In this document: positions 42,444 through 53,604 of the stretch, piece after piece
Position numbering within the stretch: position 1 is the stretch's first letter
How the letters are laid out: the number at the start of each line of letters is the position of its first letter
Made by a program: the position numbers and the translations under genes
Notes under the pieces: model-generated
Told to the model about the DNA's origin: nothing
The model's database searches: none
What the model saw: only the letters and a program-made list of their open reading frames with translations
From: Myxococcota bacterium
GTDB lineage: Bacteria > Myxococcota > XYA12-FULL-58-9 > JALHOP01
Assembly (NCBI GenBank): GCA_022842935.1
Contig: JALHOP010000007.1
Location: forward strand, 265,592-329,591
Length of the DNA stretch: 64,000 bases
Reading direction: 5' to 3'

Positions 42444-43149
42444 GAAGTCCTCACGGTTTGTTATGCCGTTCGATACCCGCTATGACAAGACGCCAATGGA
42501 TCGGCCTAGTTAGCGACCCGCGGAGCGCCGCACTGCAGCACTGGAGCGCTCAAGCGACCGCCGCCGCTTCGCCGGGGCGTACGATCAACTTAGGGCGCAG
42601 GCACGAGGCTCGCGCGAGCGCGCTTGCTTCACAGTGCTCGATTGGCGCGCACGTTGGTGACCGCGCGTCTTTCGCTCCGGGCACGCCGCAGCCCGCTCCG
42701 GGGCACACGCCCCTTTCTTCATGCGGGGGTGCTTGGCGATGAGTTGCCCAGGATGAGCCTGTCCGCACGTCGCGAACCGGGTGTCGGTGGCGCCGTCGTG
42801 CCCCGGATCGGACTGCGTCGTGTCCTCACTACGCCGCGCTATTTCGCTCAAGCTTCGGTCGCTAGACGGCGCGGTAAAAGCGCGTCGGTCCGGCGTAGCC
42901 GGCGCGCAAGCGCTTCGATCACACGCAACACCGTCTGTCGATTCTCACAACGCATCAAAACCGCCGAAAGCTACGCCGAATCCCAACTTGAACGTGCGCC
43001 CCCCCGCGCGCGCAGGGAGGGGCGCGCAACTTCGCGCCTGGTCGGGCCGATACTGTGCACAGAGCCGACGAAAATGTCGGGCTGCGTACGTTTTCGGGGC
43101 CCAGCCCCAGCCCCAGCCCCAGCCAACCCGAACCAGGAGCCGCCGCCCG
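42444..43149. other. Long intergenic region before the TPR/RNase-like operon
   Basis: About 700 bp with no convincing gene; open frames here have atypical, Arg-rich translations and are judged non-coding. It must hold promoters for the divergent methyltransferase and the TPR gene. A hexamer repeat lies at 43101-43124 and a Shine-Dalgarno-like AGGAG follows at about 43135. Confidence 0.5.
43101..43124 (+). repeat. Tandem hexanucleotide repeat (CCAGCC, four copies)
   Basis: Four uninterrupted copies of CCAGCC lie 25 nt before the TPR gene start, in the leader between any promoter and the Shine-Dalgarno. Copy-number change would alter spacing in steps of 6 bp. Confidence 0.85.
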
Positions 43150-43590
43150 ATGTTGACCACAGAGCTCGTCCGAGGGCCCGTCACGGGCGCTCCCGACATC
43201 GACGCCCTCGCCTCCGAAGACCTCGCCGACCTCGAAGCTCTTGCGCGCCTCGCATGGCAGCGCGGCCGGCATGACGACGCCCGGGACATCGTGCATGGCT
43301 TGATCGTCCTTCAGCGCGACAACCCTGACTTCTGGACCCTGCTCGGCGAGGTCGAGCGCGACGCCGGCGAGCTCGACGCAGCGTGGGCGGCGATGAACGA
43401 GGGTATGGAGCTCGACACCACCTACGCGCGCGCGGTCGCACTCGCTGACGTGCATCTGCTGCGCGGCGATCTCGAGCGCGCGAGCGACGCCTTGACCTTC
43501 GTGCGCCTCAACTGGCCTGCGGACGATGACGAGTGTGTGAGCGAGCTCGACGCGCGTCTTGCCCGCCAACGCGATGGGAGCACCGTGTGA
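43150..43590 (+). CDS. TPR protein coupled to the RNase R-like gene
   Basis: 146 residues from ATG 43150, with AGGAG 10 nt upstream. It consists of tetratricopeptide-like helix pairs: DLADLEALARLAWQRGRHDDARDIVHGLIVLQRDNPDFWTLLGEVERDAGELDAAWAAMNEGMELDTTYARAVALADVHLLRGDLERASDALTFVRLNWP. The three-repeat size is like class II type III secretion chaperones (LcrH/SycD), but that may be general TPR resemblance. Its stop codon overlaps the GTG of the RNase-like gene (GTGA), which argues that the two proteins work together, for example as a complex. Confidence 0.78.
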   Translation: MLTTELVRGPVTGAPDIDALASEDLADLEALARLAWQRGRHDDARDIVHGLIVLQRDNPDFWTLLGEVERDAGELDAAWAAMNEGMELDTTYARAVALADVHLLRGDLERASDALTFVRLNWPADDDECVSELDARLARQRDGSTV

Positions 43591-45914
43591 ACACACCGAC
43601 CGTAACCTCCCCCGCGCGTAGCGATGGCCCGCACGGCACGAGCGGGGTCGAGCAGCCAGCCGCGCCCAGCCAGCCCGTGAGGGTCAGCACCGCGCGTGAT
43701 GTCTTCGCGCCCGAGAAGCCGCGCGGACCCCGCCTCATCCGCGAGCTCCCGCACCCTCGCGCGGTCGAGAAGCTCGCCGAGATCGCAGCGCACGCGAAAG
43801 GTGCCGCCCAGGGCATCCTCAAGGCAGCCGCGGCCGCCGCAGCGCGCACCGCCCGTCCGTCACTGCTCGAGGTCGTCCTTACCGACCGCTCGGAGGGTCG
43901 CGATAAAGCGCTCGCCGAGATCCGCGAGCCGGTTACCGGCGTCCTCAAGCGCGAGATCGTCGTCCGGCCCGATGGCGACGTCATCGTGCGCGCCCGCTTC
44001 CGCCCGCACCAGGCCGTCGGTGAGACGGACCTCAAGGTCCCCGGGGCGACGTGGATCGATCTGCCGACGCGCGACTTCGCAGGCATCCCCAACGGCGCGG
44101 TCATCGAGCTCAGCACGGCGCGCCAAAAGAAAGGCCGCGATAGCAGTTGGAAACTAGAGTTCGACCGTAGCCACGCTCATCCGGTCGTCAACATGGTTGG
44201 CACGGTCGTCGAGGAGGGCGACAAGCTATATGTCGCGGCTTCGACCGACTTGAGTCCGCTAAAGCGTCTGGAGCTCAAGAGCAGTGCTCCTGCCCGCGAG
44301 CTCGTCGGCAAGACCGTCGTGGTGGACGTCAAGGACGGGCTCGGCGCCAAACCTTACGGCATTCTCCACGACATCCTCGACGAGACCGACACGCTGCGGG
44401 TACGCCAAATGCGCGCCGCCGCAGACTGCGGGATCGCGATCGCCTTCCCGTCGGCCGTGCTCGCCGAGTCGCAAGCTCTGGAGAACGCTCGCCCCGACTT
44501 CGGGCCCAGGCCCGGCATCGTCGACATGAGCGATAAGGCGTGGACTTCGACCGACAACCCCGGCTCGCAGAGCGACTACCGCTCGGTCGATCCCGAGCAG
44601 GCAAGTTACATCGAGAAGCGCCCCGATGGCGGCTGGACGGTCTACGATGCGCTTACCTACCGCCGTAGCTTCGTCGCGCGCGATAGCGCCACCGAAGCGC
44701 ACGCCGCCATCCAGCAGTTCACCGTCTACGCCGACGGCGCCGACGCTCCGGCCTTCCCGAGTACCGTTAGCGAAGACCTGGCGGTCTTCATCCAGGGGAA
44801 ACCGCGCTACGCCAAGGTGGTCAAGACCGTGTACGACGCGAGCGGCACGCTGCTCGAAGGCAATACCGAAGTGTTCTTGGCCCGCATCGTGAACCAGTGG
44901 CAAGGCAGTTATCGCGAAGCCGAGCGCTATTTCGTCGATCCGAGCAAGGTCGATCTCACACCGGCGGTGCGTGAGCAGCTCGACCTAGGGCGCGCACTTC
45001 TCGAAGCCCGCGCCACAGCAAAAGGCTCTGGTGCCCGCCATGACGGACGCTACCGGGCCGAGCTCTTGCGCGAGCTCTTCTCGATCTCCGGCAACAAGGA
45101 GGTCGGTCGGCTCATCAAGAGCATGGGCGGCGTCTCTGTGCACCGTCACCACCCCGAAGCGAGCACTGGCCGGCTTGCCGGCTTTCAGGAGTTCGCCGAA
45201 GCGATGGGTGTGCCTTGGGGCGACGCGCTCGATCTCGTTGGCTACGTCGACAAGCTCGACCCCGCTGACCCGCGCTCCGAGGTCCTCGCTTTGCAAGCCA
45301 TGCGGACCATGGCGTGGGCCTACTTCTCAACCACCGAGAGTGGTCATGCGGGTCTGCAAGCCGAGGACTACGATCAGGTGACTGCGGCCAATCGCCGTGG
45401 CCCCGACATCGTCAACCTCGAGCAGGGGGCGGCGGCTTCCGAGGCCAAGACGAGCGGGACGGCGCCGACGTGGCCATGGACCGAGAAGCAAGCCAAGCGC
45501 ATCGAGGACCAGGCAAACGCACGCCAGGCCTTAGTGAAGCGCGACGTCGACGACTACTTCGTTGGGTTGCGGGCGGCGGAGGCTTTGAAGGACTTCGTCG
45601 GCCAGACCGTGAGCGCGAAGCTCATCGATATCCGCCCGAGCGGACTGACCTTCGCGGTGACCGGTATGAACGTGCGGGTCAAGGTGGGTCTGCGCAAAGT
45701 CGCGGACACCTTTGGCGAGTACTTCGACGTGATCAAGGGAGGGGCCCGGCTGGAGTCGCAAGGCGGCACGCACGTCTTCGATGCCGCCAAGACCTACACC
45801 CTGCATATCCACGGCGTGGATCGCGAGCTCGGTGTCGTCAAGGCGGTGCCAACCTCCGCGGCGCCGGTCGCGGTGGCGGGCGCACCTGCCCCTTTCGCAC
45901 TGCGCATCGAGTAG
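43587..45914 (+). CDS. Degenerate RNase II/RNase R-like protein, probably without exonuclease activity
   Basis: 775 residues from GTG 43587. Residues 1-90 are disordered. From ~93 the order follows RNase R: a cold-shock/OB region (SLLEVVLTDRSEGRDKALAEIREPVTGVL, 93-120), a second OB region ending KPYGILHDILDETDTLRVRQMRAAADCGIAIAFPSAVLAESQAL (255-298), an RNB-like domain (~310-610) and an S1-like OB domain (670-755). RNB landmarks: TSTDNPGSQSDYR (320-332), VSVHRHHPEA (517-525), VLALQAMRTMAWAYFSTTESGHAGL (566-590) and ANRRGPDIV (601-609). The usual catalytic Asp cluster D-x-D(D/Q) reads SDYR here, so most catalytic Asp are lost. It is coupled to the TPR gene. Role unknown. Confidence 0.7.
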   Translation: MNTPTVTSPARSDGPHGTSGVEQPAAPSQPVRVSTARDVFAPEKPRGPRLIRELPHPRAVEKLAEIAAHAKGAAQGILKAAAAAAARTARPSLLEVVLTDRSEGRDKALAEIREPVTGVLKREIVVRPDGDVIVRARFRPHQAVGETDLKVPGATWIDLPTRDFAGIPNGAVIELSTARQKKGRDSSWKLEFDRSHAHPVVNMVGTVVEEGDKLYVAASTDLSPLKRLELKSSAPARELVGKTVVVDVKDGLGAKPYGILHDILDETDTLRVRQMRAAADCGIAIAFPSAVLAESQALENARPDFGPRPGIVDMSDKAWTSTDNPGSQSDYRSVDPEQASYIEKRPDGGWTVYDALTYRRSFVARDSATEAHAAIQQFTVYADGADAPAFPSTVSEDLAVFIQGKPRYAKVVKTVYDASGTLLEGNTEVFLARIVNQWQGSYREAERYFVDPSKVDLTPAVREQLDLGRALLEARATAKGSGARHDGRYRAELLRELFSISGNKEVGRLIKSMGGVSVHRHHPEASTGRLAGFQEFAEAMGVPWGDALDLVGYVDKLDPADPRSEVLALQAMRTMAWAYFSTTESGHAGLQAEDYDQVTAANRRGPDIVNLEQGAAASEAKTSGTAPTWPWTEKQAKRIEDQANARQALVKRDVDDYFVGLRAAEALKDFVGQTVSAKLIDIRPSGLTFAVTGMNVRVKVGLRKVADTFGEYFDVIKGGARLESQGGTHVFDAAKTYTLHIHGVDRELGVVKAVPTSAAPVAVAGAPAPFALRIE

Positions 45915-50676: not shown

Positions 50677-51261
50677 GTGCGTATCCTCCTTGCCGTCGGC
50701 TGCGTTCTTTGGGCGGCGTGTACCTCGAGCACGAGCGCGCCCGTCAAGCCTGCGGCACTCCCGACTCCCAGTGAGAACGCGGTTCTGGGCCCGGGTGACG
50801 TTTTCGAGGTGAGGGTGTTCGGCGAGGAGGGAATGTCCGGCGCCTACCGCGTAGCGGGTGACGGCACGATCGACTTTCCCCTGGTCGGCAAGACCATGGT
50901 CGACGGTCTGACGGCGAGCACCCTCGCCGATGAGCTTCGTCAGACGCTCTCGAAGTATCTCAACAACCCAAGCGTCTCGGTTTTTCTCAAGGAGTACAAC
51001 TCGCGCAAAGTGTTCGTCTTCGGGCAGGTTCGACAGCCCGGCACGTTCGCCTACGAGCAGGGAATGAACATCGTGCAGGCAATTACTCTGGCGGGCGGGT
51101 TCGAGAAGTTGGCCGACCAGGACGGTACCTCCGTGACACGTGTCGTCGAGGGACGCGAGCAGAGGCTCAAGGTTTCAGTGAAAGCCATCGCGGAGGGACG
51201 GGCGCAGAACTTCCGACTCGAGCCAGGAGACATCGTCTTCGTCCCCGAGACTCTCTTCTAG
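50677..51261 (+). CDS. wza: Wza-like polysaccharide export lipoprotein
   Basis: 194 residues, GTG start. Lipobox WAAC at Cys15 in [15 protein letters not shown]. The conserved export-protein segments are [37 protein letters not shown] (Poly_export) and [44 protein letters not shown] (SLBB). It is about half the length of E. coli Wza, lacking extra SLBB domains and the C-terminal helix, as in short EpsY-type proteins. It forms the outer-membrane exit for polysaccharide. Followed 3 bp later by the polymerase-like gene. Confidence 0.93.
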
Positions 51262-51264
51262 CGC

Positions 51265-53604
51265 ATGAAGACCATGCTGCCGCGGCTTGCGGTTTGTGCA
51301 TGCGTTGTCATCCTGCCCAGCGCGGCTGGCTTCACCGCCCCAATACGCGACACGATCACTGCGGCTCTGTTGCTCGCCGTCATGGTCGCCTACGCGGTTC
51401 AACGACGGTCCTTGCGTTTCTGCCCCAATCCGGTGACGGCGGCTGTGCTCGTCGCCCTCGCGGTCGCGTCTATCCAGTGTCTCCCGCTCCCAGCGTCGCT
51501 CGTCAGCCTGCTTTCACCAGGGGCGCGCGACATCTACGCAGTCACGCGTCCTGATGCCTTGCGTCTTTCATTGAGCTTGGACGTGCCTGCCACCGCGCAC
51601 TGGCTGGTCAAGCTCGTCGCCCTGTACGCCGCAGCGGTGCTTGCTCCCGCCGCTTTCCCCTCGCGCGAGGAGCGTCGCTGGCTGAGCGCCGCGGTTGCAC
51701 TTGGCGGCGTCGTCTTCGTCCTCACGAGCCTCGCTGGCGGCGATGCGCTCGACGGAAGTGAGCCTTTGCGCGGCGCGCTCACGAACCCAAACCACGCTGG
51801 AACGTATCTCGGGCTTGCTTGCTTCTTCGCGATCGCAGGCTGGGTTCGCGACGAGGAGACGCGATGGCCGCTCTATGCCGTTGCGACCTTCGTCTGTGGC
51901 GCTGGCGTGTTCATGACCGCATCACGCGGCGCCGCGCTGAGCTTCGTCCTTGCTGCATGGGTCGTCATGGTCGTCTGGTGGCGAGGCTCGGCGAAGCCGG
52001 CCCTTGCGGGCGTCGTGCTGATGGCATCCGCTTTAGCGCTCGCGGGTATGGCGTATTGGGTTTACACGACGGAGACCGTTGGACGACCGAAGGTCATCGA
52101 CAAGACTGCACTTTGGCCCGTGGTGGCCGGCATGGTGCCCGATTTCGGCTGGCTCGGGGTCGGGCGCGGTGCCTTCGCCACGGTATTCACGCGCTACACC
52201 ATTTTCCCAGTCGACCTGACTTTCACGCACGTCGAGAACGAATATCTGCAAGCGGTCATCGACTTCGGTGTCCCAGCCGCCCTGGTTCTCATGGGACTCC
52301 TTGCATGGCAGGTGGTGCGCATCGCGCGCGGCGTTCAGAGGCGTACGACCATGGTCGTCGTCGTCGGGTTACTGTTCGTTGCAAGTCGCGACATCGCCGA
52401 CTTCGGTGCCTCACGCCTCGCGATCGCCGTGCCATGCGTTCTGATGCTTTCTGCTTTAGCGACGACGCGTCGGTTGCCGTCGTCACGCCGCTGGACGCAC
52501 GTCGCACCCGCACTTCTCGTCGTTGCGGTTCTGCTTGCCGTCGCCGCACCTCATGCCGTGGCCCACGAGCTGGCGCGCGACACGCGCTCTCTTGCCGCCT
52601 TGCCACTCGATGCGGGGTTAGAGGCCCGCAGGCTCATCGAGCTCCATCCAGCGGACTTCGTCATGCGCGCCGTTCGCGTCGAACGCCGCCTCAACGCTCG
52701 CGCTCTCGATCGTGAGCTCTGGCATGACCTGAACGCCGCGCTTTACCTCGCCCCGTTGCACGCGACGCCGCACCGCCTCGCCGGTCGCGCTCTCCTCCTC
52801 GCTGGACACCGCGCTCAGGCGCTGGGGGAATATCGCGCCGCCGTGCGCTGTGACGGCAGCAAGACCCCTCAGATCATCGCGGAGCTCGGAAGCTACGACG
52901 CGACTGATGACGAGGTCGCAAGCCTCGCCGAGGAACCCGACGCGCGGGAGTCGGTCGCCCTACACTTTCTGCGACGTGGTTTGCCGGAGCGCGCGCTCGC
53001 TGCGTTAGGCGTCCAGACGCAAAACGACTCCGTGGTTGCCGTCGAGATCAGGGGTCGCTCCGCCCTTGCTCTCGGCCAAGAACAACGGGCGTTGGCGCTC
53101 GCCGAGACTCTCCAGGACCAGGCGCCCGGCTACTACGCCGGGTACGAGCTCGAGGTGCTCGCGCTGCGCAAGGTCGGCAGTCCAGAGCGGGCCGAGCTCG
53201 CGTTGCGGCGGGGACTCGAACGCGTACCCACGTCCCGTGAGCTCGCTTACCTTGCGTTCGCGAGCGCACTCGACAGAGGCGCCAGTGAAGAGGCCCGCGG
53301 CATCGCCCGCGCCTATCTCGCTCGCGCCACGCGTCCGAGCGACATGGCGCAAGCGCATCTCTGGGCTGCCACGACGCACCAACGCGATGGCAACAACGCG
53401 CGGGCCTTGCGCGAGCTCGAGCGTGCGCGCGAGCTCGCGCCCGCCGACGGTATGGTGCGTATTGGTCTCGTACGCGCGCTGTGTGCCAATGGAGATCTAG
53501 CAGGCGCTCGTCGCGAGCTTGGAGCCGCGCGTGCCATCCTGGGGGGGACCTCGGATCTCGAGGCGCTCGAACAACTCATCGAAGCCGCTTCTAGGCCGCA
53601 TTGA
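51265..53604 (+). CDS. O-antigen ligase/Wzy-like polymerase with C-terminal TPR domain
   Basis: 779 residues. Residues ~1-440 have about 11 hydrophobic helices with the O-antigen ligase/Wzy_C landmarks NPNHAGTYLGLACF, FMTASRGAALSFVLAAW and FTHVENEYLQAVIDFGVPAALVL. Residues ~480-779 are soluble and helical with TPR-like units (LHATPHRLAGRALLLAGHRAQALGEYRAAVR, ERALAALGVQTQNDSVVAVEIRGRSALALGQEQRALALAETLQD). The TPR part, probably periplasmic, could position substrate or partner proteins. It follows wza by 3 bp and its end overlaps the convergent glycosyltransferase by 14 bp. Confidence 0.88.
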   Translation: MKTMLPRLAVCACVVILPSAAGFTAPIRDTITAALLLAVMVAYAVQRRSLRFCPNPVTAAVLVALAVASIQCLPLPASLVSLLSPGARDIYAVTRPDALRLSLSLDVPATAHWLVKLVALYAAAVLAPAAFPSREERRWLSAAVALGGVVFVLTSLAGGDALDGSEPLRGALTNPNHAGTYLGLACFFAIAGWVRDEETRWPLYAVATFVCGAGVFMTASRGAALSFVLAAWVVMVVWWRGSAKPALAGVVLMASALALAGMAYWVYTTETVGRPKVIDKTALWPVVAGMVPDFGWLGVGRGAFATVFTRYTIFPVDLTFTHVENEYLQAVIDFGVPAALVLMGLLAWQVVRIARGVQRRTTMVVVVGLLFVASRDIADFGASRLAIAVPCVLMLSALATTRRLPSSRRWTHVAPALLVVAVLLAVAAPHAVAHELARDTRSLAALPLDAGLEARRLIELHPADFVMRAVRVERRLNARALDRELWHDLNAALYLAPLHATPHRLAGRALLLAGHRAQALGEYRAAVRCDGSKTPQIIAELGSYDATDDEVASLAEEPDARESVALHFLRRGLPERALAALGVQTQNDSVVAVEIRGRSALALGQEQRALALAETLQDQAPGYYAGYELEVLALRKVGSPERAELALRRGLERVPTSRELAYLAFASALDRGASEEARGIARAYLARATRPSDMAQAHLWAATTHQRDGNNARALRELERARELAPADGMVRIGLVRALCANGDLAGARRELGAARAILGGTSDLEALEQLIEAASRPH

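What the first reader, a model, noticed from the sequence alone, without database searches (positions are those of the whole stretch)
43150..45914. Coupled TPR protein and catalytically degenerate RNase R-like protein
Seen: a 146-residue TPR gene overlaps by 4 bp a 775-residue protein whose N-terminal OB regions, central region and C-terminal S1-like domain follow the RNase R order. At the catalytic loop (residues 320-332) the sequence TSTDNPGSQSDYR lacks the Asp cluster of active enzymes, and the RNB motif TSPIRRYPD is reduced to TAANRRGPD. Established: RNase II/R use four Asp to bind two Mg ions; inactive relatives can be RNA-binding regulators. Inference: this is a dead exoribonuclease repurposed, with the TPR protein as partner. 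I know no described system with this pairing.
Basis: partly seen in the sequence, partly recalled or inferred. Interest (0 to 1): 0.75.

Follow-up and report, generated by a model that had tools for sequence, protein, structure and literature searches.

The report
Degenerate RNase R-like protein with TPR partner
A bacterium of the myxobacterial phylum carries a protein shaped like the RNA-degrading enzyme RNase R but with a damaged active site, translationally coupled to its own small TPR partner; the pairing recurs in related genomes with better-preserved copies, so this looks like a bacterial counterpart of the fungal 'pseudonuclease' Ssd1.

Summary
The 775-aa protein has the RNase R fold (Pfam RNB 82 bits; Foldseek best match E. 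coli RNase R, E 1e-33) and overlaps a 146-aa TPR gene by 4 bp. Two Asp survive. The position reported as most critical in RNase II (D209) is Glu; 29 of 29 aligned relatives have Asp there. The protein keeps 23 of 42 strongly conserved RNB columns, the relatives 82-100%. Catalysis is probably lost or crippled, but this is not shown.

The TPR pairing is not peculiar to the degenerate copy. A dedicated, overlapping TPR gene precedes all six N-extended RNBs in Myxococcota whose upstream DNA is held; the TPR profile finds only these six (155-185 bits; next 47). The same genome holds a second pair, whose RNB keeps D201/D207/D209 and is fused to an ExeM/NucH-like nuclease domain; P0002 is its fast-evolving sister. 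Fungal Ssd1 is the known precedent. The TPR model most resembles secretion chaperone SycD, but P0001 fails that family's cut-off (36.8 versus 104.8 bits), so export remains a minority hypothesis.

The parts
43135..43139 (+). AGGAG, Shine-Dalgarno-like, 10 nt before the TPR start
   Evidence: sequence; inference
43150..43590 (+). P0001, 146-aa TPR protein: disordered first 14 residues, then a short helix and seven helices (three TPRs plus cap)
   Evidence: AlphaFold mean pLDDT 86.8; Foldseek best SycD 4am9 E 3.3e-5
43587..43590 (+). GTGA stop/start overlap, translational coupling; the same kind of arrangement (1- or 4-nt overlap) in all six pairs
43587..45914 (+). P0002, 775-aa RNase R/RNase II-fold protein
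43587..43916 (+). residues 1-110: disordered Ala/Pro/Ser/Thr-rich N-terminus with weakly predicted helices 57-69 and 73-89, an extension present only in TPR-linked RNBs; candidate TPR-binding segment
   Evidence: binding is inference
43932..44378 (+). residues 116-264: two OB/cold-shock-like regions
   Evidence: strand pattern in model and RNase R structural match
44523..45425 (+). residues 313-613: RNB domain
   Evidence: Pfam PF00773 82.2 bits; genome search hit
44544..44606 (+). residues 320-340: degenerate catalytic loop, TSTD323-NPGSQ-SDYRSV-D335-P-E337-Q338
   Evidence: alignment of 30 RNBs; loop 329-333 pLDDT below 50
44571..44588 (+). six-residue insertion SDYRSV (329-334) in the catalytic loop, unique to P0002
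45381..45407 (+). TAANRRGPD (599-607), degenerate form of T(S/A)P(I/M)RR; R603 (=R500) kept, P601 lost
45606..45851 (+). residues 674-755: C-terminal S1-like beta region
   Evidence: model; NCBIfam RNase II/R profile matches to about residue 737

Best explanation
The two genes are a translationally coupled pair: a small TPR adaptor and an RNase R-fold protein. The pair belongs to a Myxococcota family of such pairs. In this copy the nuclease centre has degenerated, probably after a TPR-RNB pair duplicated and the other copy kept its catalytic Asp. P0002 most likely works as an RNA-binding pseudonuclease: RNA enters through the OB/S1 funnel and is held, not degraded. P0001 binds the N-terminal extension of P0002 and stabilises it or docks it to a partner. 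Shown here: fold, coupling, dedicated partner, residue losses, paralogous pair. Inferred: loss of activity, RNA binding, and TPR binding to the N-terminus.
For: RNB/RNase R fold. The D209-equivalent is Glu, D358 is Tyr, a disordered 6-aa insertion sits in the catalytic loop and about 20 residues after 478 are missing. In E. coli RNase II, D209N abolishes activity without affecting RNA binding (PMC3293843). The fungal pseudonuclease Ssd1 has Ser/Val/Glu/Phe at the four Asp, so it too has Glu at the third position (PMC8934651), and it is among the fold matches (7am1, E 2e-22). The ORF is intact over 775 codons with codon-position GC (0.70/0.49/0.82) like its neighbours, so it is not a visibly decaying pseudogene. 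The own genome keeps a canonical RNase R on C1 and a second TPR-RNB on C4. Each N-extended RNB with upstream DNA has one TPR gene directly before it, and the TPR profile finds only those six genes in 8 genomes at 155-185 bits, the next hit being 47. TPR and RNB pairwise identities correlate, r = 0.93 over 15 pairs (the pairs are not independent). P0002 and C4 are sisters (94/93), P0002 with the longest end branch, 2.05.
Against: D323, D335, R603 and an acidic E337 remain, so residual or altered nuclease activity is not excluded. No orthologue of the degenerate copy is held (no other genome of the same family), so purifying selection on the pseudo-site cannot be tested. The degeneration could be young. 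No TPR-RNB contact was modelled. Long branches make the sister placement with C4 less sure.
Confidence: 0.5

Rival explanations
1. P0002 is still a working but altered exoribonuclease: D323, D335 and E337 bind the metal in a remodelled loop, and the TPR protein is a regulatory or targeting subunit.
For: Two catalytic Asp, one Glu, the catalytic Arg603 and invariant H587, Y595 and Y381 are kept. The aligned D-x-D-Q relatives all lack the fourth Asp, so strict conservation of all four is not universal.
Against: D209 is the most critical Asp of RNase II (PMC3293843). P0002 deviates at 15 further RNB columns conserved in at least 85% of relatives and has lost about 20 residues of the RNB core. PMC8097288 lists D201, D209 and D210 as the Mg ligands, of which P0002 keeps one unchanged.
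Confidence: 0.25
2. The pairs are exported nuclease effectors with their dedicated TPR chaperones (type III secretion-like): P0001 holds the disordered N-terminus of the RNB protein for export into prey or other cells; P0002 is a diverged or RNA-binding member.
For: The predicted P0001 fold ranks T3SS chaperone SycD first, with PcrH, an Aeromonas T3SS complex and IpgC among matches. NCBIfam ranks LcrH_SycD or SctY first for three of the six TPR proteins. The RNBs have low-complexity N-termini without an obvious Sec signal. The C4 paralogue carries an ExeM/NucH-like extracellular-type nuclease region. All carriers have SctV over cut-off, and 6 of 47 other P0001 hits lie within 15 kb of an SctV.
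Against: P0001 scores 36.8 bits against a cut-off of 104.8 for LcrH_SycD, while better SycD-like proteins exist elsewhere in the genome (105, 91, 84 bits). SctV is in 113 of 195 Myxococcota genomes, so co-occurrence is weak. No T3SS secretin over cut-off. The pair is not in the T3SS locus. Designed consensus TPRs match the P0001 fold almost as well. The near-SctV enrichment is confounded by protein length and rests on a rough chance estimate.
Confidence: 0.15
3. P0002 is a released duplicate on its way to decay, with no selected function.
For: Longest branch of the tree (2.05); many conserved residues lost; no orthologue seen.
Against: Open over 775 codons, normal codon-position GC, overlap with an equally open TPR gene kept, confident fold, and only 26-29% identity to its paralogue, which implies long retention.
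Confidence: 0.1

Closest known systems
Ssd1/Sts5 fungal pseudonucleases (RNase II family; PMC8934651, PMC8097288)
   Same: RNase II fold with degenerate Asp cluster, including Glu at the D209 position; descended from an active nuclease, in some fungal lineages after duplication
   Different: Fungal, derived from Dis3L2, with CSD1 and S1 insertions that block the RNA path; no TPR partner gene. P0002 keeps two Asp and its RNA binding is untested.
RNase R / VacB and RNase II (NCBIfam TIGR02063, TIGR00358; Pfam PF00773)
   Same: Domain order OB-OB-RNB-S1 and overall fold
   Different: P0002 scores 77.9 bits against the RNase R cut-off of 597.9; its catalytic Asp are partly replaced. The canonical RNase R of this genome is on contig C1.
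Standalone 'D-x-D-Q' RNB proteins of Actinomycetota, Myxococcota and others (450-650 aa)
   Same: Nearest RNB relatives outside the TPR-linked set; share Gln at the D210 position
   Different: They lack the N-terminal extension, and no TPR gene was seen upstream in those examined.
LcrH/SycD class II chaperones of type III secretion
   Same: Small three-TPR fold; best solved-structure match of the P0001 model
   Different: P0001 is far below the curated cut-off, is not at a T3SS locus, and its neighbour is an RNB protein, not a translocator.

Membership tests
RNase II/RNB superfamily | RNB domain over the curated Pfam cut-off | tested here: met
   82.2 bits vs 29.3
RNase II/RNB superfamily | RNase R/RNase II fold and domain order | tested here: met
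   Foldseek 5xgu E 9.6e-34 over 691 columns
RNase R (active exoribonuclease) | NCBIfam RNase_R equivalog cut-off | tested here: not met
   77.9 vs 597.85 bits
RNase R (active exoribonuclease) | four catalytic Asp (D201, D207, D209, D210) | tested here: not met
   D323, D335, E337, Q338
RNase R (active exoribonuclease) | catalytic Arg500 | tested here: met
   R603, invariant in 30 of 30
RNase R (active exoribonuclease) | 3'-5' exoribonuclease activity | not testable with these tools
   needs a biochemical assay
RNase II-family pseudonuclease (Ssd1-like in manner of working) | loss of essential active-site acidic residues | tested here: inconclusive
   D209 position is Glu (as in Ssd1) and D210 position Gln, but D201 and D207 positions are kept
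RNase II-family pseudonuclease (Ssd1-like in manner of working) | RNA binding without degradation | not testable with these tools
   needs an assay
Ssd1 lineage proper | descent from Dis3L2 | not tested
   No Dis3L2 was in the tree; P0002 groups with the own C4 paralogue and bacterial D-x-D-Q RNBs, which makes Dis3L2 descent unlikely
LcrH/SycD T3SS chaperone (for P0001) | TIGR02552 curated cut-off | tested here: not met
   36.8 vs 104.8 bits
LcrH/SycD T3SS chaperone (for P0001) | three-TPR fold with capping helix | tested here: met
   Foldseek 4am9 E 3.3e-5, TM 0.73/0.80
LcrH/SycD T3SS chaperone (for P0001) | located with T3SS or translocator genes | tested here: not met
   neighbours are metabolic and polysaccharide genes; SctV over cut-off lies on contig C1

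The most novel reading that the evidence does not exclude
Myxococcota carry a class of nuclease effectors built on the RNase R fold, each with a dedicated SycD-like TPR chaperone and delivered to other cells. One member is fused to a second, ExeM-type nuclease, and one member (P0002) has turned into an RNA-binding pseudonuclease.
Probability: 0.12. Interest if true: 0.8.

Novelty: new variant of a known kind. Interest (0 to 1): 0.5.

Why it matters
RNase II-family pseudonucleases are described in fungi, where they are mRNA-binding regulators; in the papers searched I found none described from bacteria. If P0002 binds RNA without degrading it, it would be a bacterial, independently evolved case. 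It comes with an internal control, a paralogous pair in the same genome that keeps three catalytic Asp. The dedicated TPR partner makes the question 'what does the non-catalytic part of an RNase R do?' testable by simple pull-down.

Tried and rejected
A1 could not be used for the GTDB genome scan because no stretch was conserved enough; A2 without P0002 was used instead. Shared genomic neighbourhood: none between the own pairs and those of G029, G040, G043 and G054; only G040 and G054 (same genus) share neighbours. Defence system: no PADLOC match. Phage origin: the one PHROG match is a nuclease family that reflects the RNB domain. RNA element: no Rfam match in the window. T3SS chaperone as a family membership: rejected on the cut-off. 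T3SS co-occurrence as evidence: too common in the phylum to weigh much. Single origin of the TPR-linked RNBs: rejected by the AU test (p 4e-6), so I do not claim one clade; long branches may bias this. Plasmid search gave only weak matches below 30% identity, mostly ordinary RNase R.

Full report
Observation. P0001 (43150-43590) is a 146-aa TPR protein and P0002 (43587-45914) a 775-aa protein that starts at GTG inside the 4-nt overlap GTGA. P0002 matches Pfam RNB at 82.2 bits (cut-off 29.3) over residues 313-613. AlphaFold with a 30-protein alignment gives mean pLDDT 79.8, with most of the RNB core above 90. Foldseek returns E. coli RNase R first (E 9.6e-34), then other RNase R, RNase II and Dis3-type nucleases, and also the pseudonuclease Ssd1.

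Active site. Aligned with relatives, P0002 has an extra six residues, SDYRSV (329-334), seen in none of the others. The equivalents of RNase II D201, D207, D209 and D210 are D323, D335, E337 and Q338. Over 30 RNB proteins, positions 323, 335 and 603 (Arg500) are invariant, P0002 included; position 337 is Asp in the 29 others; position 338 is Gln in 20 (P0002 among them) and Asp in 10 (the number of RNase R rows); position 358 is Asp in the 29 others and Tyr here. P0002 keeps 23 of 42 strongly conserved columns; the others keep 33/40 (the C4 paralogue) to 38/38. The inserted loop is the only segment inside the RNB domain with pLDDT below 50. The literature read here reports that D209N abolishes RNase II activity while RNA binding is kept (PMC3293843), that D201, D209 and D210 bind Mg (PMC8097288), and that Ssd1 has Ser, Val, Glu and Phe at the four positions (PMC8934651). 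Loss of activity is therefore likely but is an inference.

The pair is a family. In the own genome there are three RNB genes: canonical RNase R on C1, P0002 on C7, and a protein of about 1263 aa on C4. The C4 gene is preceded by its own 146-aa TPR gene, and it carries, after the RNB domain, a region like the ExeM/NucH extracellular endonuclease (70 bits, below the family cut-off of 300). A profile of the family, run over 195 genomes of the phylum, gives full-length matches only for seven proteins: the two here and one each in G029, G040, G043, G054 and G056. For six of them upstream DNA is held, and in each a TPR gene overlaps the RNB start by 1 or 4 nt; G056 is cut by the contig end. The profile of the six TPR proteins finds these six at 155-185 bits in eight genomes, and the next best is 47 bits. 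The standalone D-x-D-Q RNB proteins, which lack the N-terminal extension, have no such gene upstream in those examined. Pairwise identities of TPR and RNB proteins rise and fall together (r 0.93). So the TPR-RNB partnership is real, and it includes proteins with three of the four catalytic Asp.

History. P0002 and C4 are sisters with 94/93 support, and P0002 has the longest end branch, so its place is less sure than the numbers say. The TPR-linked RNBs do not form one clade in this tree and the AU test rejects holding them together (p 4e-6). Either the pairing is old and was lost in the standalone lineage, or it arose more than once.

What it does. The best reading is an RNA-binding pseudonuclease with a TPR adaptor that binds the N-terminal extension, an extension found only in TPR-linked members. 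The model of P0001 is most like the T3SS chaperone SycD, whose known job is to hold an extended peptide of its cargo (own knowledge; the SycD-YopD peptide structure is PMC3443056, listed). That supports 'works like a peptide-holding adaptor', not 'is a T3SS chaperone': P0001 is well below the SycD cut-off while better SycD-like proteins exist in the same genome, it is not at the T3SS locus, and SctV is present in 113 of 195 genomes of the phylum. The export hypothesis stays open because of the ExeM-like region of C4 and the low-complexity N-termini, but it is the less likely one.

Limits. Whether D-x-D-Q RNBs are active was not established here, so 'better preserved' for the relatives means only that D201, D207 and D209 are present. 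No orthologue of the degenerate copy is available for a selection test. The genome is a draft assembly of 46 contigs with no close relative in the collections searched.

Noticed in passing
G000 contig C4:186107-189898 (L034:6108-9899): 1263-aa fusion of a D-x-D-Q RNB domain with an ExeM/NucH-like nuclease region that keeps QE, GDxND and SDH motifs (by eye), coupled to its own TPR gene; an RNase- and a DNase-type domain in one chain.
   Followed up: partly
window 43100-43124: (CCCAGC)4.2 perfect hexanucleotide repeat 26-50 nt before the TPR start codon; its copy number might vary and affect expression.
   Followed up: no
G000 contig C2:445710-446096 and C2:457500-457898: Two SycD/LcrH-like chaperone genes (105 and 91 bits), one at the curated cut-off, away from the SctV-like genes on C1 and at C2:526192; a T3SS translocon locus may lie there.
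   Followed up: no
G036, G039, G041 RNase R loci (L042, L037, L041): RNase R genes directly preceded by, and in two cases overlapping by 4 nt, a TatD-like metal-dependent hydrolase gene (judged by eye from the translation).
   Followed up: no
RNB proteins of Actinomycetota and Myxococcota (e.g. L102, L119, L093): A large RNB subgroup with Gln instead of the fourth catalytic Asp (D-x-D-Q); whether these are active and on what is not clear from what was read here.
   Followed up: partly
window 50677-53604: Polysaccharide export protein followed by an O-antigen ligase-like protein with C-terminal TPRs, part of a surface polysaccharide cluster.
   Followed up: no
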